Assembly: GCF_029240175.1 (NCBI RefSeq) | Contig: NZ_JARBTM010000005.1 | Span: forward strand, 1 to 64,000 | Direction of reading: 5' to 3' | DNA length: 64,000 bases | DNA from: Anaerosolibacter sp. | Lineage (GTDB): Bacteria; Bacillota; Clostridia; Peptostreptococcales; Thermotaleaceae | In this document: piece after piece, positions 27,103 through 36,410 of the stretch | How positions within the stretch are numbered: the first letter of the stretch is position 1 | Layout: every line of letters begins with the position of its first letter | Translations under genes and position numbers: made by a program | Notes under the pieces: model-generated | Told to the model about the DNA's origin: nothing | What the model saw: the letters and a program-made list of their open reading frames with translations, nothing else | The model's database searches: none

Positions 27103-28944
27103 ATGTATCAAAGCTTAGAAGAATGTATTCTTGATTTAGAGAAAACTGGTCAATTGGTTAGGATACATGAAGAGGTCGATCCTTATCTTGAAATGGCAGC
27201 TATACATATGAGAGTTAATGCAGCAGGAGGTCCTGCACTCTTATTTGAAAATGTTAAAGGTTCAAAATTTCGAGCGGTATCTAATTTATTTGGTAATATA
27301 GAGAGAAGTAAATTTATTTTTAGGCATACCCTAGATGCGACAAAGGACGTGATTGCTTTACGCAATAACCCAATGGGTGTATTGAACAATCCGATTAGAC
27401 ACTTGAGCACAGGATGGGCTGCTTCAAAGTCACTTCCTTTTAAAAAAGCGAGCAATAAATTGACTGGCTTCAAGGAAATACAAATTTCAGATCTTCCCCT
27501 TATTCACCATTGGCCAGATGATGGAGGAGCATTTATCACTTTGCCTCAAGTGTACACTGAAGACCCTGAAAAACCTGGGATTATGAATAGCAATCTTGGA
27601 ATGTACCGTGTTCAGCTTAGCGGTAACGAGTACAAATTAAATAAAGAAGCTGGTTTGCACTATCAAATTCACAGGGGAATAGGTGTTCACCAAGAGAAAG
27701 CAAACAAGCTTGGGGTTCCGTTAAAAGTGAGTATTTTTATTGGAGGTCCTCCTGCGCATACGCTAGCTGCAATCATGCCATTACCTGAAGGGTTAAGTGA
27801 AATGACATTTGCAGGTTTGCTTGCTGGTCGTAATTTTCGTTATTGTTATGTGGATGGTTATTGTATTAGTCTAGATGCAGATTTTGTGATTACAGGTGAG
27901 GTCCATCCAGGTGAAACAAAGCCAGAGGGCCCTTTTGGCGACCATATTGGATATTACAGTCTTATTCATGATTTTCCTCTATTTAGGGTACATAAAGTGT
28001 TTGCTAAGTCCAATGGAATATGGCCGTTTACTGTTGTTGGGCGGCCCCCACAAGAAGATACTGCCTTCGGTGACCTCATTCATGAGTTAACAGGTAATGC
28101 TGTAAAACAAGAAATTCCAGGGGTAAAAGAAGTCCATGCTATAGATGCAGCAGGCGTTCATCCGCTGCTATTTGCAATTGGAAGTGAACGGTACACACCG
28201 TATCAAAAAGTTAAACAACCAGCTGAACTCCTCACTATTGCAAATCGAATTTTAGGAACAGGACAGGTAAGTCTAGCAAAATATTTATTTATTACAGCCG
28301 AAGAGATGCAACCATTAGACACCCATAAAGAAATAGAGTTCTTAACGTATATCCTTGAACGAATTGACCTTCATCGTGATATTCATTTTCAAACAAATAC
28401 AACGATCGATACCCTTGATTATTCGGGAACTGGCTTAAATACAGGCAGTAAAGTGGTAATTGCAGCCTACGGGGATCAAAAAAGAAACTTGTGTCAAGAA
28501 GTCCCTGTTCAGTTGAAGGATTTATTCGAATTTAAAAATCCATTATTAGTGATGCCGGGGATTGTAGCCATCGAAGGACCAGCATTTTCAAGTTACCAAC
28601 AAGCACATAAACAATTAAATGAGCTATGCACAGCTATTCAGGCAAGAGGCACAATGCCAACATGTCCAATGATTATACTATGTGATGATAGCTCGTTTAT
28701 AAGTGGCTCCCTCCAAAACTTTTTCTGGGCCACATTTACGAGAAGTAATCCTTCCCATGATATTTATGGCGTGAATAGTTATTATGAAAACAAACATTGG
28801 GCTTGCGACAATATGATTATCGATGCCCGTACAAAACCACACCATGCACCACCGCTCATTCCTGAACCAGCAGTTGAGAAGAACATTGAGCGTCTATTTG
28901 AAAAGGGAGGGAGCTTAAGCAAAGTAAAAATAACAAAGCCATGA
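27103..28944 (+). CDS. UbiD-family decarboxylase
   Basis: The 613-residue enzyme matches the longer form of UbiD-family decarboxylases, which use prenylated FMN to remove a carboxyl group from aromatic or unsaturated acids. Landmarks include the N-terminal LEECILDLEKTGQLVRIHEE, NPMGVLNNPI, the flavin-site region NLGMYRVQL...LHYQIHRGIG, and EVHPGETKPEGPFGDHIGYY with the conserved acidic residues. No ubiX (flavin prenyltransferase) gene is adjacent, so cofactor must come from elsewhere. Relatives of this length take part in menaquinone synthesis or aromatic acid metabolism; which applies here is unknown. GGGGATAG precedes the ATG at 27103. Confidence 0.85.
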   Translation: MYQSLEECILDLEKTGQLVRIHEEVDPYLEMAAIHMRVNAAGGPALLFENVKGSKFRAVSNLFGNIERSKFIFRHTLDATKDVIALRNNPMGVLNNPIRHLSTGWAASKSLPFKKASNKLTGFKEIQISDLPLIHHWPDDGGAFITLPQVYTEDPEKPGIMNSNLGMYRVQLSGNEYKLNKEAGLHYQIHRGIGVHQEKANKLGVPLKVSIFIGGPPAHTLAAIMPLPEGLSEMTFAGLLAGRNFRYCYVDGYCISLDADFVITGEVHPGETKPEGPFGDHIGYYSLIHDFPLFRVHKVFAKSNGIWPFTVVGRPPQEDTAFGDLIHELTGNAVKQEIPGVKEVHAIDAAGVHPLLFAIGSERYTPYQKVKQPAELLTIANRILGTGQVSLAKYLFITAEEMQPLDTHKEIEFLTYILERIDLHRDIHFQTNTTIDTLDYSGTGLNTGSKVVIAAYGDQKRNLCQEVPVQLKDLFEFKNPLLVMPGIVAIEGPAFSSYQQAHKQLNELCTAIQARGTMPTCPMIILCDDSSFISGSLQNFFWATFTRSNPSHDIYGVNSYYENKHWACDNMIIDARTKPHHAPPLIPEPAVEKNIERLFEKGGSLSKVKITKP

Positions 28945-28975
28945 TAAGGAATGATTCTTTATCATGGCTTTGTTA
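28931..28975. terminator. Seventeen-base-pair terminator overlapping the ubiD-type stop codon
   Basis: TAACAAAGCCATGATAA (28931-28947) is the exact complement of TTATCATGGCTTTGTTA (28959-28975). The left arm contains the last four codons and the stop of the decarboxylase. It also serves the convergent transpeptidase gene. Confidence 0.8.
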
Positions 28976-28996
28976 TACTTGATAAGGATTAAAATT

Positions 28997-30157
28997 TTAC
29001 GCTACATACACACCGGTACCATCTTTTATATGATCATAAACCCACTTAGCATCATCTACGCTTAATCGAACACAACCATGGGAAAGAGATTCACCTAGGC
29101 GTGAATCAATAATTTTTTCCCCCTTAGCATCAAATAAAATGGAATGAAAATAATAATTTCCAAAAAACCTTACTTTGTATTTTGCTTTTACATCTCCACT
29201 ATAGGAAGTGAGCCATGGTGCTCTGCCATCAATTTGAAAATTTCCTTTAACAGTGGGTGTAGAAGCCTTTCCATCTGTACAGGCCATCTCTTTTATAAGA
29301 TTCCAATTTTTGTTTTCGCCTTCAAAAACATAGACAAAGTTCTTATCTGTATCCACCCACATGAAATGCTTGGTTTTACTATCAAAATCTGTTTCATTTA
29401 TAACTTTTTCTAGTCTTTCTGTTTCAGAAACAGTTTTTTCATATATAATAATTTCTTCTGAATACTCACTGACGTATTTATCAAATTTGTCCCTCACATA
29501 TACACGGCCCTTATAGACCCCAGGCTCATTCGGTGTATAGTTAATACTATTATTTTCACTGAGTAATCCATCATATGCTACAGTTGAATCCTTGAATATA
29601 TACCAATGATAAACTAAATTCGCTCCTTCCGCTGAAACGGAAAAGGTCAGGGGTGTACCAACGGGCTGTTCACCATTTTTATCTACCGAAACAGAATGAA
29701 TTGTTATTGGCTGAATAATATCTATTTTTTCTGATAACTTACTTACAGTATAGCCATTGGAATCTTTAACAGTTACAAGAACTTGGTATGTTCCAAATTC
29801 ATTCATTGAAAAATCGAAAAAGTTTTCTTTGCTATAATCCTTTTTATAGATTTCATCAAAGTCTTTAAATAACATCCATTTATAGTCTAAATTTTCATGT
29901 TTAGAAATAGCCGTAAATCTGACGACTGTTCCTATCATCTCAATAGTACGCTTATCAAATGTTATTGAATCTATTTTTAGGGAGGCTGTATTTGTAACTT
30001 CTATATCCTCATTCGTATTCTTAGGTTTAATTTCCTCAATTGTTGATGGACTGTTATCTTCTCCATGTACTTCATTAACCGATAAAACTTGTACTTGAAG
30101 CAGCACCAAAATAAAAATTAGTACATAATAAAACAGTTTGTTCCTTTTACTAAGCAT
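28997..30157 (-). CDS. Secreted L,D-transpeptidase (YkuD) with two Ig/PKD-like domains
   Basis: The 386-residue precursor has an N-terminal hydrophobic signal or anchor (LFYYVLIFILVLLQVQVLSV), then two related beta-sandwich modules of about 90 residues (YKWMLFKDFDEIY and YHWYIFKDSTVAY mark equivalent strands). The C-terminal catalytic YkuD domain has HSILFDAKG and SHGCVRLSVDDA holding the catalytic His and Cys. Such enzymes form or edit 3-3 cross-links in peptidoglycan, or attach proteins to it, in vegetative wall or spore cortex. A GAGGGGG site precedes the ATG at 30157. It faces the UbiD-type gene across a shared terminator and diverges from the sugar cluster. Confidence 0.9.
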   Translation of the reverse strand: MLSKRNKLFYYVLIFILVLLQVQVLSVNEVHGEDNSPSTIEEIKPKNTNEDIEVTNTASLKIDSITFDKRTIEMIGTVVRFTAISKHENLDYKWMLFKDFDEIYKKDYSKENFFDFSMNEFGTYQVLVTVKDSNGYTVSKLSEKIDIIQPITIHSVSVDKNGEQPVGTPLTFSVSAEGANLVYHWYIFKDSTVAYDGLLSENNSINYTPNEPGVYKGRVYVRDKFDKYVSEYSEEIIIYEKTVSETERLEKVINETDFDSKTKHFMWVDTDKNFVYVFEGENKNWNLIKEMACTDGKASTPTVKGNFQIDGRAPWLTSYSGDVKAKYKVRFFGNYYFHSILFDAKGEKIIDSRLGESLSHGCVRLSVDDAKWVYDHIKDGTGVYVA

Positions 30158-30383
30158 AGTCCCCCTCCATAGTCTGATAATTTACCTACAAAGAAAATAT
30201 ATGTGTTTACTATTGGGGGTATGAATGAATTAATTTTCAACTATACGATGATTCATACCAAATAGTGACTTAGGATGGGAGTGGGTTTTGATATACTAAG
30301 CTATTACCTTTTTTGGCTGGTGAATATACTATTATATTATGCCATAGCATATAATCTAATAAACCATTCGAAAGGGAATTACA

Positions 30384-31346
30384 ATGATTAAGATTGCTTT
30401 GATAGGTTGTGGGAAATGGGGTAAGAACTATCTGAAAACCCTAATTTCAATGGAAGAATGTGAGTTAAAGTGGGTCTGTGATCTTGATCCAAGAAAACTA
30501 AAGGAAGCTGGCCTGGATTATCCTCAAATTCAATATACTGAAAATAAAGAGGATATATTAAATGACAGTACAGTACAAGGGGTAGTTATTGCCACCACAC
30601 CTGAGAGTCACTACATACTAGCTAAGGAATTCATCAACAAAGGAAAAGCAGTGCTTGTAGAAAAACCCGTGACAATAAATCTGAAAGACAGTATGGAGTT
30701 AATAAATCTAGCTGCTGCCCAAAGTACCATATTGATGGCCGGGTACACATTGATGTATCACCCAGCAGTTAGAAAGATAAAAATGATATTAAAAGAAAAT
30801 GATAGCATAGATGATGTATGCTATTTAAACATGTCCAGAACCAATGCTTTGTCCCAGGTCTCTGGGGTAGATGTTCTTTATGATCTGGCAGTTCATGATA
30901 TATATCTTTCACACCATCTAGTGGGAGAAGAGCCTATTTGGGTAATTGCACAGGGTGGAAGTTACCTTGGAAGTTCCAATAACAATGTTATTTATATTCT
31001 CCTTGGTTTTCCAAGTGGTAAAGTCGCTTCAATTTTTGCAAGCTTCATCCACAGTGAAAAAACGAGAAAAATTGCATTAATTACATCAAAGGGAAAATTG
31101 GTTTTTGATGATGTACAGCCAGCGGACAAAAAAGTTCAGTTTTTCACCAATGGGGATAACTGTCATGTTTTAGTAGATGAAGGAGATTCAGAGCCCTTAA
31201 AGCTTGAGTGTCACCACTTTATTGAATGTATCAGTGAGAATAAGGAACCCCATAGTGGTAAAGAATATATTTATTTTGTGGAAAAGGTTACGGATTGCAT
31301 TACACAATCACTTGCAAAAGGGGGAGAAAAAGTCATTATCCATTGA
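30384..31346 (+). CDS. Gfo/Idh/MocA family sugar oxidoreductase (GnnA/WlbA-like)
   Basis: The 320 residues give an N-terminal NAD-binding Rossmann domain with GCGKWGKNYL (residues 8-17), the conserved EKP at 93-95 whose Lys is catalytic in the family, and the substrate-domain motif DLAVHD (Asp167, His171). Family members that partner a DegT aminotransferase (GnnA, WlbA, WbpB) oxidise C3 of UDP-GlcNAc or UDP-GlcNAcA. Here it heads a five-gene cluster that ends with such an aminotransferase and contains an LpxC homologue, so UDP-GlcNAc 3-dehydrogenase activity is the best inference. AAAGGGAATT precedes the ATG. Confidence 0.82.
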   Translation: MIKIALIGCGKWGKNYLKTLISMEECELKWVCDLDPRKLKEAGLDYPQIQYTENKEDILNDSTVQGVVIATTPESHYILAKEFINKGKAVLVEKPVTINLKDSMELINLAAAQSTILMAGYTLMYHPAVRKIKMILKENDSIDDVCYLNMSRTNALSQVSGVDVLYDLAVHDIYLSHHLVGEEPIWVIAQGGSYLGSSNNNVIYILLGFPSGKVASIFASFIHSEKTRKIALITSKGKLVFDDVQPADKKVQFFTNGDNCHVLVDEGDSEPLKLECHHFIECISENKEPHSGKEYIYFVEKVTDCITQSLAKGGEKVIIH

Positions 31347-31400
31347 TGGAATAATAGTCAATCAGAATGGCGAGGGGTATATATTATAGTAAGGGTAAGC

Positions 31401-32390
31401 GTGATAAGAATGATGTTGGTAGTCAAGAGATATATGGAAGTCTATGAAAATGAATGGAATGATTTTGTTGCTTCTTCTGTGAATGGGACCTTCATGCAGG
31501 AGAGAAAGTTTTTGAATTACCATCCTGTGGATAGGTTTACGGACCATTCATTAGTTTTTATGGAAAATAAGCGGATTATTGCTGTTCTTCCTGCAGCTCA
31601 AATACAGAAGGAAGATGGAAAACTTGTATTGATATCTCATCCGGGCGCATCCCACGGAGGACTCATTATTCAACCCAGCCTCGGTACTAAAAAATGTCTG
31701 GAGCTGGTTGAGGCTTTCATTGAATACTGTAAAAATTCTAGTTTTGAATATATACGACTAAAACCAGTTCCGAGGATTTACCATAGGGAGTTGGCGGATC
31801 AACTAGACTTTGCATTAAGATTTACGGGATTTTACATAGAATATACGGAATTGGCTACGGTCCTTGCACTGAATAAAGGGCAGGAACCTTTTTTAAAGCG
31901 TGTAATGGGCGCTGCGACTTTTCGAAACTATAAGAAGGCGTTAAAAAGTGGATTATCTGTTGCTGAGGAAGCAGATATCAATGATTATTGGCCTATATTA
32001 GAAAAAAAGCTTGAACAGAACCATCATACAAAGCCCACCCACTCACTTGGGGAAATCAAACACCTAAAAAGCCTTTATCCTGATAAAATTAAACTCTTTG
32101 CAGCCTATACAGGGGAAATACAAACAGCGGGGGTTTTGGTGTTTTTACTAAACGAAAGAGTAATGAACTGTTTTTATATCGCCCACGACGACAATTATCA
32201 GCACATGCGTCCGCTGAATCTGATATTTGGTCATCTCATGGAGTGGGGACGAAAGAACGGTTTTTTTTATTTGGATTGGGGTATTTCCACTGAACAAAAA
32301 GGAAGCAGGGTTAATGCCGAGTTATTCCGATTCAAAGAAGGTTTCGGAGGACATGGGGTATTACGAGAGAGTTATGTATATGTTCTATAA
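31401..32390 (+). CDS. FemAB/GNAT-like acyltransferase
   Basis: The 329-residue protein resembles the Acetyltransf_6 (FemAB/BioF2-like) group: an N-terminal half with SVNGTFMQERKFLNYH and KRIIAVLPAAQIQ, and a C-terminal half with ETAGVLVFLLNERVMNCFYI-like strands and LNLIFGHLMEWGRKNGFFYL. These enzymes move acyl or aminoacyl groups to amines on sugars, lipids or wall peptides. In this cluster it could acylate the amino group made by the aminotransferase; that is inference. The GTG at 31401, after GTAAGGGTAAG, is chosen; ATG 31410 is possible. It follows the oxidoreductase by 54 bases. Confidence 0.72.
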   Translation: MIRMMLVVKRYMEVYENEWNDFVASSVNGTFMQERKFLNYHPVDRFTDHSLVFMENKRIIAVLPAAQIQKEDGKLVLISHPGASHGGLIIQPSLGTKKCLELVEAFIEYCKNSSFEYIRLKPVPRIYHRELADQLDFALRFTGFYIEYTELATVLALNKGQEPFLKRVMGAATFRNYKKALKSGLSVAEEADINDYWPILEKKLEQNHHTKPTHSLGEIKHLKSLYPDKIKLFAAYTGEIQTAGVLVFLLNERVMNCFYIAHDDNYQHMRPLNLIFGHLMEWGRKNGFFYLDWGISTEQKGSRVNAELFRFKEGFGGHGVLRESYVYVL

Positions 32391-32511
32391 AACAAACAAT
32401 CATTACTTAAGTTATCAACCAATAACATATCTCCAATCTGTCTATAGTAGACATGATATTTAACTGTGGGGTGGATCACACACGAAATCTGCTGTTAAAA
32501 GGGAGGAAAAT

Positions 32512-33477
32512 ATGCGTAGAATACTGTTTTTTGCCCGCAGTTCCAAATATACCCTCGGTCTTCCACAGGGGTTTAGAGAATTAGGTTGTCCTGTTTATGT
32601 TCTAAGGGATTTAGATAAAAATTCTATAAAGGAAGCAGTTGATTACTTTAGGCCGGATCTTTTAATAACAACAGGGTGGGCGTATCGCCGACATAAACGG
32701 AAATATATAGATCAGCTCGTTGAGAAAGTGGCTAAGTATAGGATAAAACATGTATATTGGGCAACCGAGGACCCACGATGGACTGAAGCGTGTTCTTTTC
32801 AATGTATTGAAATTTTCAAGCCAGATGGAGTTTTAACGATACATCCCGAAAGCATAGGCAAATACCAGAGATTAGGAATCCCTGCAGGACACCTAGATTT
32901 TGGATGTAATCCTGAATTTAACAAACTGGAGCCCCTTAGCAGTCATTATGCTTATGATGTGGCATTGGTGGGAAATGGGGGAAAAGAGTGGAATTCATAC
33001 AGAAAAGACAGTGTTCAAATATTGCTGAAGCCTTTGGTCGAAAGAGGATATAACATAGCAATTTGGGGTAAGCGATGGGAACGCTTTAACGAGGAATTGA
33101 TGGGATTTAAGATACCAAGGCATATGATTAAGGGTGAGCTGCCCTACGAGGAAACAAACAAGGTTTACAATTCAGCCAAGATCATAATAGGTCTGCAAAA
33201 TGACCAAGAAATGTTAACCTCACGGACTTTTGAAGTGCTAGGTTCAGGCGGTTTTTTACTGACAGTACCTACCCAGGCGGTCAATAACTTGTTTATCCAT
33301 AAGGTTCATCTAGTATCTTCATCTTACCCTGAAGATACAGTCAACCTTGCTAATTATTATCTGAAAGATGGCTTTGCACGGCAAGTGGTGGCACAGAATG
33401 GCCAAAGGGAGGTTTATGTAAATCACACATATAAAGAACGAGCTAAACAAATTTTAAAATTCGTATACCTTGGTTGA
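32512..33477 (+). CDS. CgeB-like glycosyltransferase
   Basis: The 321-residue protein is a GT-B-like glycosyltransferase with an N-terminal nucleotide-sugar-fold half (RRILFFARSSKYTLGLPQGF, PDLLITTGW, YWATEDPRW) and a C-terminal glycosyl_trans_1_2 region (YDVALVGNGG, YNIAIWGKRWERF, LPYEETNKVYNSAKIIIGLQ, SRTFEVLGSGGFLLT). The last motif corresponds to the Glu-containing donor-site loop. CgeB of Bacillus acts in maturation of the spore outer layer. GGGAGG sets the ATG at 32512. Sitting inside a sugar-modification cluster, it would attach the unusual sugar to a surface acceptor, possibly on the spore. Confidence 0.8.
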   Translation: MRRILFFARSSKYTLGLPQGFRELGCPVYVLRDLDKNSIKEAVDYFRPDLLITTGWAYRRHKRKYIDQLVEKVAKYRIKHVYWATEDPRWTEACSFQCIEIFKPDGVLTIHPESIGKYQRLGIPAGHLDFGCNPEFNKLEPLSSHYAYDVALVGNGGKEWNSYRKDSVQILLKPLVERGYNIAIWGKRWERFNEELMGFKIPRHMIKGELPYEETNKVYNSAKIIIGLQNDQEMLTSRTFEVLGSGGFLLTVPTQAVNNLFIHKVHLVSSSYPEDTVNLANYYLKDGFARQVVAQNGQREVYVNHTYKERAKQILKFVYLG

Positions 33478-33520
33478 CAGAATATTGAATACAAAATGTT
33501 GCAACTAGAAAGGAAATGAA

Positions 33521-34420
33521 ATGCATAATCAGAAAACGATACAACAACATGTTTCCTTAACGGGTATTAGTATAACCGGGGAAGCAGATGCAAGGGTTAC
33601 GTTTTGTCCTGCCCCTCCGAATACGGGTATTGTATTTATCCGTAATGACTTGCCACACCGCCCAAAAGTGAAATGCTTATTGAAAAAGGCAAAAGTTGAA
33701 TACCGATGGACTTCTCTGGTCCATGGAAATGTCCGCATTGAACATACTGAGCACGCATTGGCGGCCATATCAGGATTGGATTTGGATAATTTGTTTATTG
33801 AGCTGGAGCAGCCTAGTTTGCCTGTAATGCCTGACTACAGCAGTAAAGATTTCGCGCAGGCCCTAATAAACGCAGGGGTAGTGCAGCAACCCTTTGATCA
33901 GGAGAAGATTAAGATACATAAACCTATTATTGTTTTTAAACGGGGAAGGTTTGGTGATGTGAAAAATGAAAAGCTGCTCATTGTTCTTCCTTACGATGGC
34001 TTTAAATTAACATATATGCTTGATTATCCTAATCTGCCCCAGATTTCGCAAGCGGCTGAAATAAATATTACTCCCGACACTTTCATTAAGGAATTGGCTG
34101 CTGCCCGTTCTTTTATCATTGAATCGGAAGCTGAAGAAGTTGTAAAATTGACAGGAAAAGCCAGTTCAAATGTTTTGATCGTTAAATCTGGATCTGAACA
34201 TGGAGAATGGCTTTGGCCAAATGAACTTGCCCGGCATAAAGCATTGGATCTTCTTGGGGATCTCAGCTTGCTTGGAAAAAGAATTATAGGCCATGTGATA
34301 GGTATTCGATCTGGACATCAATTAAATCTTGAGCTATGCAAAAAAATTTATAAGGAGTGTAAAAATGATTCCTTTGGTGAAACCCATGCTTGGTATAGAG
34401 GAACAAATGCTGGTGAATGA
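33521..34420 (+). CDS. LpxC-like UDP-3-acyl-N-acetylglucosamine deacetylase
   Basis: The 299-residue protein aligns with E. coli LpxC (305 residues) over its whole length. The N-terminus KTIQQHVSLTGISITGEAD and PAPPNTGIVFIRNDL match. Zinc and catalytic residues are in place with a one-residue shift: Glu77/His78 in TEHALAAISGLDLDN (E. coli 78/79), His239 and Asp243 in ARHKALDLLGDL (238/242) and His266 in RSGHQLNL (265). LpxC removes the N2-acetyl of UDP-3-acyl-GlcNAc in lipid A synthesis, yet no other lipid A gene is present here. It overlaps the aminotransferase by 56 bases, showing tight coupling. AAAGGAAATG sets the start. Confidence 0.88.
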   Translation: MHNQKTIQQHVSLTGISITGEADARVTFCPAPPNTGIVFIRNDLPHRPKVKCLLKKAKVEYRWTSLVHGNVRIEHTEHALAAISGLDLDNLFIELEQPSLPVMPDYSSKDFAQALINAGVVQQPFDQEKIKIHKPIIVFKRGRFGDVKNEKLLIVLPYDGFKLTYMLDYPNLPQISQAAEINITPDTFIKELAAARSFIIESEAEEVVKLTGKASSNVLIVKSGSEHGEWLWPNELARHKALDLLGDLSLLGKRIIGHVIGIRSGHQLNLELCKKIYKECKNDSFGETHAWYRGTNAGE

Positions 34421-35453
34421 AGTTCTTTTAAGTGGAAAGCTAGCCCAGGGAGAATATGTAGAAAAGTTTGAACAAGATTTTGCCTTATACCAAGGATCTA
34501 ATTATTGTGTTGCAATCTCTTCTGGAACCGCTGCTCTCCATGCAGCATTGTTGGCATCAGGCATTCAGTCAGGTGAAAAAGTCATAACCACACCGTTTTC
34601 ATTTATAGCCACAGCAAATGCAATCCTTTATGCACAAGGAGAGCCTGTCTTTAGCGACATAGCGCTGGCAAACTATAATATGTCTCCTCATATCTTACTG
34701 GATACGATAAAAAATCATCCCGACACAAAAGCAATCATTGTTGTTCATCTTTACGGTCAACCAGCACCTATGAAAGAAATTATGGAAATTGCTAACAAAT
34801 ATAACTTGATCGTTATAGAAGATTGTGCACAAGCCCATGGGGCTTCAATCAATGGAAAGAAAGTTGGAACTTTCGGGCACTTAGGTGTTTTTAGCTTTTA
34901 TCCTACAAAAAATATGACCTGCGGCGAGGGTGGCATGCTTACGACTCAGGACAAAGAGATGGCTAAGAAAGTCAGAAGCCTGATAAATCATGGTCAGGCA
35001 GCTAAATATCACCATGATTTACTCGGGTATAATTATAGGATGACGAATATTCATGCAGCAATAGGCATAGAGCAACTACGTAAGCTGCCCAGATTTAATG
35101 ATAGGCGTAAAGAAATTGCGGGACGGTATTCTAGAGACATAACAAATCCTGCGTTTACTAAGCCAATCTGTTTGACAGGGTTTGAACATGTATATCATCA
35201 GTACACCCTAGGGGTGAACAACCGAAATCATTTTATAGAATACCTTGAAGTACATGGAATTGGATATGGCATTCATTATCCCAAAGCTATTCCCGACCAG
35301 CCCCTATATCAACAAAGAGATAATTTGGGGTCATTCACAAATGCCTGTAAGGCTGCAGAAAGGGTAGTGTCAATACCAGTTCGCCCAGGACTGACAGAGC
35401 AGGAGGTTGACTACATCATCACGACCTTACAAAATTATAGAGAAAATGGATAG
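34365..35453 (+). CDS. DegT/DnrJ/EryC1 aminotransferase (GnnB/WlbC-like)
   Basis: A 362-residue PLP enzyme of the sugar aminotransferase family. Landmarks are SSGTAALHAALLASG (residues 52-66), VIEDCAQAHGAS with the cofactor Asp (near 153) and FSFYPTKNMTCGEGGML with the Schiff-base Lys182. The C-terminal IHYPKAIPDQPLY is typical. Members paired with Gfo/Idh/MocA oxidoreductases transaminate 3-keto UDP-sugars to 3-amino sugars using glutamate. TAAGGAGTG sets the ATG at 34365, inside the 3' end of the LpxC-like gene, so the two proteins should be made together. It closes the intact part of the cluster. Confidence 0.87.
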   Translation: MIPLVKPMLGIEEQMLVNEVLLSGKLAQGEYVEKFEQDFALYQGSNYCVAISSGTAALHAALLASGIQSGEKVITTPFSFIATANAILYAQGEPVFSDIALANYNMSPHILLDTIKNHPDTKAIIVVHLYGQPAPMKEIMEIANKYNLIVIEDCAQAHGASINGKKVGTFGHLGVFSFYPTKNMTCGEGGMLTTQDKEMAKKVRSLINHGQAAKYHHDLLGYNYRMTNIHAAIGIEQLRKLPRFNDRRKEIAGRYSRDITNPAFTKPICLTGFEHVYHQYTLGVNNRNHFIEYLEVHGIGYGIHYPKAIPDQPLYQQRDNLGSFTNACKAAERVVSIPVRPGLTEQEVDYIITTLQNYRENG

Positions 35454-35680
35454 TCCTATAAGGGTACTCGTTATGAGTGCTGGTTCCGTATACGGGATTG
35501 GTATCATCAGAACACTTTCTTTTCCACTTGATCCGCTTAAACAAATTAGAAATGATATGCTATGATTGGGAATGATCTATATATTGAAGAAAAATGTATG
35601 GATCATCCCATACCTGATAAAATAAAAATTACTACAGGAAGTGATTCCAGTAGTAATTTCCAAATCAAGGGTATTTTGTC
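35446..35680 (+). pseudogene. Broken ATP-grasp-like gene remnant
   Basis: An ATG at 35446 overlaps the aminotransferase stop, as expected for the next operon gene, and opens MDSPIRVLVMSAGSVYGIGI followed by IRTLSFPLDPLKQIRNDML and a stop at 35563-35565. The start resembles the nucleotide-fold of carbamoyl-phosphate-synthase-like ATP-grasp proteins (LVxSAGSVxGxGIIRxL). A shifted frame continues with IGNDLYIEEKCMDHPIPDKI. It seems to be a frameshifted, truncated relic of a sixth cluster gene. The family assignment is tentative. Confidence 0.4.
35626..35659 (+). terminator. Terminator-like hairpin at the end of the sugar cluster
   Basis: AAATTACTACAGGAA and TTCCAGTAGTAATTT pair at 14 of 15 positions around GTGA. 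Confidence 0.55.
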
Positions 35681-35741: not shown

Positions 35742-36308
35742 TTAGCGACCGTGCTCTTGTTCAGCAGCTTCCGCAGCTGCTTTCGTTTCATGAACTGTAC
35801 CTCGTGGATGCTGTGGCGGCGCATAAATAGAGTATAATTTGATTGGTTTATTCCCTGTATTGATCAAGTTGTGCCATTTACCAGCAGGTATGATGAAGGC
35901 AAAATCATCATAGACTTTTTCTTGAAAATCTAGCTTATCTTTTCTATCACCCATTTTAACAACTCCCTGACCGTCTTCGATACGTATAAATTGATCAAGG
36001 TGAGGATGAATCTCCAAACCAATATCTTCACCAACATTAATACTCATCAAGGTAAGCTGCAAATGGGTTCCTGTCCATAAAGCGGTACGGAAAGTGTTAT
36101 TTTGTTTAGTGACCTCCTCGATATTTACTACAAAGGGTTCTGGTCCATAATCTCTAAATTTAGTATAGGGTTGAGGAAAGTCTGAGTTATACATGGGTGT
36201 GTTAACCCAGTAAGGATATGGATTATAAACATTATGCATATTGTATGGCTGATGCATTGGTGTATTTACATAATAGGGGCAGGAATATGGGTTATACATA
36301 GGATACAT
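35742..36308 (-). CDS. Cupin protein with a Tyr/Pro/Asn/Met-rich N-terminus
   Basis: The 188-residue product has a low-complexity N-terminus of about 50 residues with a repeated unit (NPYSCPYYVNTPMHQPYN, then NPYPYWVNTPMYNSDFPQPY), then one cupin barrel. Its metal site is visible as EIHPHLDQF (two His and an acidic or Gln position) and KWHNLINTG. The N-terminal composition resembles coat and exosporium-associated proteins of spore formers, so a spore-coat-bound sugar isomerase or binding protein is plausible, but this is inference. Start chosen at ATG 36308; ATG 36326 is possible. It is convergent with the sugar cluster. Confidence 0.75.
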   Translation of the reverse strand: MYPMYNPYSCPYYVNTPMHQPYNMHNVYNPYPYWVNTPMYNSDFPQPYTKFRDYGPEPFVVNIEEVTKQNNTFRTALWTGTHLQLTLMSINVGEDIGLEIHPHLDQFIRIEDGQGVVKMGDRKDKLDFQEKVYDDFAFIIPAGKWHNLINTGNKPIKLYSIYAPPQHPRGTVHETKAAAEAAEQEHGR

Positions 36309-36410
36309 ATTATTCACGCCTTTCATCTTCTTTTAGAATTAACATATGCCCTATGGCTTGGCAATGTGCTTCGATTTTTAGGAATGGCATATCCCTGGGA
36401 TAAATAAAAA

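What the first reader, a model, noticed from the sequence alone, without database searches (positions are those of the whole stretch)
30384..35565. LpxC homologue inside a diamino-sugar-like cluster in an apparently monoderm spore former
The sequence shows an LpxC-like protein with the zinc and catalytic residues intact (His78, His239, Asp243, His266, Glu77, all shifted by at most one residue from E. coli), in an operon with a Gfo/Idh/MocA oxidoreductase and a DegT aminotransferase. Known GnnA/GnnB pairs turn UDP-GlcNAc into UDP-GlcNAc3N, and LpxC then removes the N2-acetyl after acylation. Here a FemAB/GNAT-like acyltransferase and a CgeB-like glycosyltransferase are present, but no lpxA, lpxD or lpxB. 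Inference: an unreported pathway that makes a 3-acylamino-2-amino sugar for a spore or cell surface glycan.
Basis: partly seen in the sequence, partly recalled or inferred. Interest (0 to 1): 0.88.

Follow-up and report, generated by a model that had tools for sequence, protein, structure and literature searches.

The report
Repurposed LpxC in clostridial sugar cassette
Some spore-forming bacteria that seem to lack the endotoxin pathway carry a travelling cluster of sugar-building genes that includes an enzyme otherwise known from making endotoxin, with its catalytic core intact and its fat-binding region rebuilt, which suggests that it now helps to build a different, non-fatty sugar, perhaps for the spore surface.

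Summary
Window 33521-34420 encodes a true LpxC homologue (PF03331, 209 bits; predicted fold matches P. aeruginosa LpxC, Z 37.7) with zinc and catalytic residues intact, in a row with a Gfo/Idh/MocA oxidoreductase, a FemX-like acyltransferase, a CgeB-type glycosyltransferase and a DegT aminotransferase. Own-genome searches found no LpxA or Omp85 and no LpxB above cut-off. Fifteen related loci (69-84% LpxC identity) lie in Anaerosolibacter, nine Clostridium genomes, Formimonas and four others; the next LpxC found is at 38%. The cassette moves horizontally (more alike than SpoIVA in 64 of 66 genome pairs). Its LpxC forms a separate clade: H19, C63, G106, T191 and most of the GGS[LF]xxA stretch of insertion II are replaced. 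Best reading: LpxC recruited as N-deacetylase of a non-lipid, perhaps aminoacylated, UDP-amino sugar. The spore link rests on a SigK-like promoter and gene company.

The parts
30328..30355 (+). SigK-like promoter AC-N18-CATATAAT upstream of gfo
   Evidence: Exact AC-N16..18-CATANNNT in 9 of 16 cassettes (0.26 expected from Markov resampling), CATANNNT in 13 of 16 (3.52 expected); rows are homologous, so not independent; consensus recalled
30384..31346 (+). gfo: Gfo/Idh/MocA oxidoreductase, best NCBIfam match UDP-GlcNAc 3-dehydrogenase (128.7 bits, cut-off 450)
   Evidence: EKP motif in 16 of 16
31401..32390 (+). femX-like tandem GNAT, possibly aminoacyl-tRNA-dependent amino-sugar acyltransferase
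   Evidence: AF2 model (mean pLDDT only 63.4) ranks streptothricin Sbb17/Sba18 and FemX/FemA first, Z 14.2-16.5, the other rows shown 11.4 or less
32429..32497 (+). remnant of wbqC (codons about 204-226)
   Evidence: tblastn 74% over 23 residues, E 7e-7; gene covered 99-100% in the 14 cassettes other than window and L014
32512..33477 (+). GT: Glyco_trans_1_2 + DUF3880 glycosyltransferase (CgeB type, by family)
   Evidence: of 14 control genomes DUF3880 rings only in Bacillus subtilis
33521..34420 (+). lpxC homologue, zinc and catalytic residues intact, acyl-tunnel region rebuilt
34365..35453 (+). degT: DegT/DnrJ/EryC1/StrS aminotransferase; best PDB match QdtB, WbpE also listed, best NCBIfam match PseC (below cut-off); start overlaps lpxC end by 56 nt
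35407..35541 (+). 5' remnant of the ATP-grasp (PRK12767-type) gene, overlapping the degT end
   Evidence: tblastn 44% over 45 residues, E 2e-7; gene covered 94-100% in 14 cassettes

Best explanation
A horizontally spread amino-sugar cassette in which an LpxC homologue has left lipid A synthesis and works as the N-deacetylase of a water-soluble UDP-amino sugar. Shown: gene content, order, spread, residue changes, deletions, constraint. Inferred: Gfo oxidises C3 of UDP-GlcNAc; DegT (or, where degT was lost, another aminotransferase, or no amination) sets an amine at C3; the FemX-like enzyme loads an amino acid from aminoacyl-tRNA onto that sugar; LpxC removes the 2-N-acetyl, recognising UDP and sugar as LpxC does but with a more polar pocket in place of the fatty-acyl tunnel; WbqC and the ATP-grasp ligase, where present, add optional further groups; the CgeB-type glycosyltransferase puts the sugar on a surface acceptor, most likely late in the mother cell for the spore surface.
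For: LpxC fold: pLDDT 87.7, Z 37.7 over 274 residues to 2ves. Zinc and catalytic residues conserved in 16 of 16. At E. coli positions H19 (T/A in 15 of 15 rows that reach it; H in 35 of 35 others), C63 (W in 16; never W in 35), G106 (Y in 16; G in 35), T191 (S in 16; T in 35), G210 (K/E in 16; G or A in 35), F212 (S in 16; L, A or M in 35) and A215 (V/D in 16; A in 34 of 35) the clade stands apart; M195 is E in 15 of 16, but D or E also in 5 of 35 others; three residues are missing from insertion II in 16 of 16. Insertion II forms the acyl passage (PMC13333357, passages); inhibitor tails contact Gly209 and Val211 of P. aeruginosa LpxC there (PMC11877204, passages). Clade is one side of a 1.6-long branch, SH-aLRT 100. 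FabZ- or hexapeptide-like neighbours in 0 of 15 clade loci, 58 of 65 others. LpxA C-terminal domain in 0 of 15 carrier genomes. Non-lipid gene company: femX homologues lie next to degT in Devosia and near degT and fdtA/qdtA in Ruegeria; WbqC relatives lie by PIG-L deacetylases in 2 of 3 regions opened. Constraint: dN/dS 0.09-0.15 for five genes, window against A. carboniphilus.
Against: No biochemistry. An acidic residue at M195 also occurs in 5 of 35 lipid A-type rows. The FemX model is weak (pLDDT 63.4). Neither sugar nor acceptor is known. Gfo scores far below the UDP-GlcNAc 3-dehydrogenase cut-off, and DegT's best NCBIfam match is PseC, a C4 enzyme (position recalled). degT is absent in 6 of 16 cassettes, which the C3-amination step does not explain well. 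The promoter rows are related, and TATAAT occurs in 11 of 16 upstream regions, so a vegetative promoter is not excluded. In the window two of seven genes are gone, so its product may differ from that of full cassettes.
Confidence: 0.6

Rival explanations
1. One reading: GnnA/GnnB-like steps make UDP-GlcNAc3N, an acyltransferase adds a fatty or short acyl group at N3, LpxC then removes the N2-acetyl as in lipid A.
For: Gfo best NCBIfam match is UDP-GlcNAc 3-dehydrogenase; DegT best PDB match QdtB, with WbpE also listed (that both act at C3 is recalled); GnnA/GnnB genes go with the Lpx genes in Mesorhizobium and Phyllobacterium (PMC5644692, passages).
Against: degT deleted by five distinct events with the rest kept; the acyl-tunnel region of LpxC rebuilt; no LpxA in 15 of 15 carriers; acyltransferase of FemX type.
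Confidence: 0.2
2. LpxC deacetylates UDP-GlcNAc itself or a 4-amino sugar, and Gfo and DegT act on another sugar or at a later step.
For: LpxC, Gfo and GT stay constrained in the DegT-less pair L024/L026; DegT's best NCBIfam match is PseC, 301.3 bits against a cut-off of 423.5; WbqC clusters elsewhere have PIG-L deacetylases, one of them among pse genes.
Against: LpxC needs a 3-acyl group for good turnover (recalled); Gfo and DegT sit in one unit and the Gfo match is to a C3 enzyme.
Confidence: 0.15
3. The cassette is a decaying leftover of a lipid A or O-antigen island with no present function.
For: wbqC and ATP-grasp broken in both Anaerosolibacter species, degT lost in six others.
Against: Purifying selection on the kept genes in the pairs tested; upstream block alignable in all 16; no FabZ- or hexapeptide-like neighbours in 15 loci.
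Confidence: 0.05

Closest known systems
LpxC of lipid A synthesis (PF03331; E. coli, P. aeruginosa, A. aeolicus)
   Same: Fold, zinc ligands, general base and acid, K239, D246, LPYDGFK motif (one position varies in 3 of 16)
   Different: About 30% identity; H19, C63, G106, T191, G210, F212, A215 changed, three residues of insertion II lost; no LpxA/FabZ company
GnnA/GnnB UDP-GlcNAc3N pathway
   Same: Gfo-type dehydrogenase plus DegT aminotransferase next to an LpxC
   Different: Known pairs go with lipid A genes (PMC5644692, passages); here degT is dispensable and no Lpx pathway was found
FemX/Sbb17 aminoacyl-tRNA-dependent transferases
   Same: Tandem GNAT, best structural matches
   Different: 10-15% identity, weak model; homologues in Ruegeria and Devosia are annotated only as GNAT
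CgeB of the Bacillus subtilis spore surface
   Same: DUF3880 family, which rings only in B. subtilis among 14 controls
   Different: CgeB itself was not aligned here; that the B. subtilis match is CgeB is recalled

Membership tests
LpxC (PF03331) | Profile match over full length above curated cut-off | tested here: met
   209.4 bits against 27, positions 1-267 of 268
LpxC (PF03331) | Zn ligands H79, H238, D242 and E78, H265 | tested here: met
   16 of 16 at E. coli-aligned positions
LpxC equivalog (TIGR00325) | Score above curated cut-off for the lipid A enzyme | tested here: not met
   153.6 bits against 187.25
LpxC equivalog (lipid A enzyme) | Hydrophobic acyl passage formed by insertion II | tested here: inconclusive
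   Residues of insertion II changed in 16 of 16; no coordinates to measure a cavity
Lipid A pathway | LpxA and LpxB in the same genome | tested here: not met
   LpxA C-terminus 0 in own genome and 0 of 15 carriers; LpxB below cut-off in own genome, not tested in the carriers
GnnA/GnnB pathway | Gfo/Idh/MocA 3-dehydrogenase plus DegT C3 aminotransferase acting in series | tested here: inconclusive
   Both families present in window and 9 other cassettes, degT absent in 6 of 16; activity not testable
UDP-GlcNAc 3-dehydrogenase NF040723 | Score above curated cut-off | tested here: not met
   128.7 bits against 450
FemX-type aminoacyl-tRNA-dependent transferase | Tandem GNAT fold and tRNA-dependent transfer | tested here: inconclusive
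   Z 14.2-16.5 but mean pLDDT 63.4 and only the C-terminal half aligns tightly; activity not testable
SigK regulon | AC-N16..18-CATANNNTA promoter and late mother-cell expression | tested here: inconclusive
   AC-N16..18-CATANNNT in 9 of 16; consensus recalled; no expression data

The most novel reading that the evidence does not exclude
A new LpxC subfamily, freed from lipid A, deacetylates an aminoacylated UDP-2,3-diamino sugar in monoderm endospore formers; the seven-gene cassette travels between species and is pruned gene by gene (degT, wbqC, ATP-grasp), giving varied spore-surface glycans from one core of gfo, femX, GT and lpxC.
Probability: 0.35. Interest if true: 0.78.

Novelty: new variant of a known kind. 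Interest (0 to 1): 0.62.

Why it matters
LpxC is regarded as the committed step of endotoxin synthesis and as a Gram-negative drug target. A clade with the catalytic core kept and the acyl-tunnel region rebuilt, in organisms where no lipid A pathway was found, points to recruitment of the enzyme for another sugar, names residues that may separate lipid from non-lipid work, and warns that an lpxC annotation alone does not mark a diderm. If the spore link holds, it opens a way to unknown spore-surface amino sugars in Clostridium.

Tried and rejected
Mobile vector: no clade LpxC relative in viral contigs (49 pattern matches, none confirmed), none at 60% identity or more on plasmids (63 records, all below 60%), no match at E 0.001 or better in the viral fold library; no shared orthologous flanking genes except between L020/L021 and L024/L026 (three ORFs a side; three other pairs match at only 32-34%). 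So transfer is shown but not the vehicle.

Search bias: the 15 loci were found with LpxC, so its constancy could come from the search. A survey with the GT gave exactly the same 5 of 391 class genomes as LpxC did, so no LpxC-free cassette was seen there; that sample has few positives. The genome scan needs an exact match to one of two short peptide patterns and kept the best 80 of 110 relatives, so intermediates between 69% and 38% could have been missed.

SigE promoter: 2 of 16, against 0.59 expected; less fitting than SigK. Rfam: no match in the window. A compensating degT copy in the six degT-less genomes: none close; best 34-38% over most of the length, up to 46% over part, apart from the short remnants at the cassettes. 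The own-genome search with DUF3880 listed one match on another contig and not the window's own GT, although one search gives that GT 41.6 bits; so a zero from this search type is not proof of absence. The M. branderi GNAT beside WbqC has no blastp match at 1e-3 to the femX-like protein. Of 50 plasmid records with WbqC I opened three regions; two have a PIG-L deacetylase, Solidesulfovibrio does not. Of three with femX homologues, Prevotella has no annotation and was not analysed. In one search the fold list is filled by the C-terminal GNAT domain; the N-terminal half is barely tested.

Rows dropped: one search lost most genomes to an ATG-only filter and was redone; one search compares 12 genomes, without window and L014 (my motif filter did not fit their SpoIVA), L025 (no SpoIVA) and L028 (split SpoIVA). 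SpoIVA dS is saturated in many of its pairs. Searches use 35 of the 65 non-clade loci, picked by hand for spread. L028 lacks the LpxC N-terminus, hence 15 rows at positions 18-21. The FabZ/hexapeptide count uses my own crude motif patterns. In one search codons with more than one difference are split by a rough rule.
Full report
What is there. The window lies in a 3.87 Mb genome of the same genus as G001, whose cassette contig has the length (165142) of the Anaerosolibacter carboniphilus contig; A. carboniphilus is in Thermotaleaceae, Clostridia. LpxC is the only PF03331 match in the genome. LpxA and Omp85 gave no match and LpxB only one below cut-off; SpoIVA is present.

Distribution. In the same family 2 of 16 genomes have LpxC, both of this genus; 5 of 391 class genomes including the own one do, the other four from a second family, in which 4 of 22 carry it. 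A scan of the 84,980-species collection confirmed 110 LpxC relatives and kept the best 80: 15 at 69-84% identity, then a gap to 38%. The 15 are A. carboniphilus, nine Clostridium genomes, Candidatus Formimonas warabiya, and four others whose contig lengths equal those of the four second-family genomes (one is titled Calditrichales, which looks wrong for that reason).

The full cassette. In 8 of the 15 loci all seven genes stand in the order gfo, femX-like, wbqC (PF08889), GT, lpxC, degT, ATP-grasp (PRK12767 type, 311 bits against 218); two of these eight are imperfect, L025 with unread bases in degT and L028 with lpxC lacking its 5' part. In A. carboniphilus wbqC lacks codons 78-124 and the ATP-grasp gene codons 188-265; in the window only short ends of both remain. 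In the other six loci (L017, L018, L019, L024, L026, L027) degT is missing, by five distinct junctions, L024 and L026 sharing one; four of the five have 3-8 nt of shared sequence at the break. No close copy exists elsewhere in those six genomes. On the cassette tree the DegT state needs at least 3 changes; the junctions raise this to five losses. The core gfo, femX, GT and lpxC is whole in all 16 apart from the lpxC of L028. Flanking genes are shared only by two pairs of close relatives.

Mobility and constraint. For 12 genomes the mean amino acid identity of gfo, femX, GT and lpxC exceeds that of SpoIVA in 64 of 66 pairs; the two exceptions are the sister pairs L024/L026 and L020/L021. Example: L022/L024, 82% against 57%, with cassette dS 0.27-0.75 where SpoIVA dS is 2.8. 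So the cassette has been transferred. Between L022 and L023, gt and lpxC dS (0.57-0.83) differs from the rest (0.13-0.23), a sign of recombination inside it. dN/dS between window and A. carboniphilus is 0.09-0.15 for all five genes; in L024/L026, which share the degT deletion, all six kept genes still show a deficit of replacement changes, p 4.7e-4 or less.

The LpxC itself. AlphaFold2 from 34 sequences gives pLDDT 87.7; the PDB matches at the top are LpxC structures, Z 34.2-37.7, then a drop to 7.4. Against E. coli and 35 lipid A-type LpxCs the clade keeps every zinc and catalytic residue, K239, D246 and the LPYDGFK motif (one position varies in 3 of 16), but H19 becomes T or A, T20-G21 mostly G-E, C63 W, G106 Y, T191 S, M195 E (15 of 16; acidic also in 5 of 35 others), G210 K or E, S211 V or A, F212 S, A215 V or D, and three residues of insertion II are lost. 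Its score lies below the cut-off of the LpxC equivalog model (153.6 against 187.25). Papers say that the acyl chain lies in a hydrophobic passage formed by insertion II (PMC13333357, passages), that His19 hydrogen-bonds inhibitor amides, and that inhibitor tails reach Gly209 and Val211 of P. aeruginosa LpxC (PMC11877204, passages). A bulky Trp at C63 and the changed GGS[LF]xxA stretch fit a shorter, more polar substituent; this is inference. On the tree the clade is one side of the longest branch, 1.6 changes per column, support 100. Arg at E. coli L62 is no evidence: 34 of 35 others have it too.

Partners. The femX-like protein has one weak PDB sequence match, an aminoacyl-tRNA-dependent peptide synthase (E 0.0032). 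Its model is weak (63.4) but ranks that enzyme's relatives and FemX/FemA in the first 11 places, Z 14.2-16.5, ahead of the other rows shown at 11.4 or less. Homologues at 31-32% lie next to degT in Devosia, and in Ruegeria one gene away from degT and fdtA/qdtA, which are on the other strand. WbqC relatives: in M. branderi next to a PIG-L deacetylase, in Mariluticola with three genes between, in Solidesulfovibrio none; so a deacetylase, of another fold, can be company for WbqC. WbqC has no solved relative by sequence, and none of the seven papers listed for the word gives a function in title or opening of the abstract (listing only). DegT: best PDB match QdtB, WbpE further down; best NCBIfam match PseC, below cut-off.

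Spore link. 15 of 16 carriers have SpoIVA, as expected in Clostridia. The GT carries DUF3880, found among 14 control genomes only in B. subtilis. A GT relative (38%) on a Niallia taxi megaplasmid is separated by two ORFs from a GPK-rich, collagen-like ORF, judged by eye. A block upstream of gfo is alignable in all 16 and reads AC-N18-CATANNNT in 9. This is suggestive, not proof.

Literature. Searches (open-licence PMC papers, capped listings read) showed no paper on an LpxC in a lipid A-free spore former. The Kdo2-lipid A evolution paper (PMC3087551) and the diderm Firmicutes paper (PMC5007114), read as passages, mention LpxC only within the lipid A pathway. Papers outside that library were not searched.

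Noticed in passing
window 27103-30157 and L014:11925-15215: ubiD and ykuD neighbour the cassette in both Anaerosolibacter species, but upstream of it in the window and downstream in A. carboniphilus, so the locus was rearranged or the cassette moved locally.
   Followed up: no
window 35742-36326 (-): A cupin protein with a Tyr/Asn/Pro-rich N-terminus, spore-coat-like in composition by eye, right behind the cassette.
   Followed up: no
L022 and L023: gt and lpxC are far more diverged than the other five genes in the same pair (dS 0.57-0.83 against 0.13-0.23), a sign of recombination inside the cassette.
   Followed up: partly
L148:6739-9984 (Niallia taxi pMEGANia): A CgeB-type GT near a collagen-like GPK-rich ORF on a 1.44 Mb plasmid.
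   Followed up: no
L023 / JAJGRE010000005.1: A record titled Calditrichales bacterium whose contig length equals that of a Clostridia class-mate genome (G207); the title is probably wrong.
   Followed up: no
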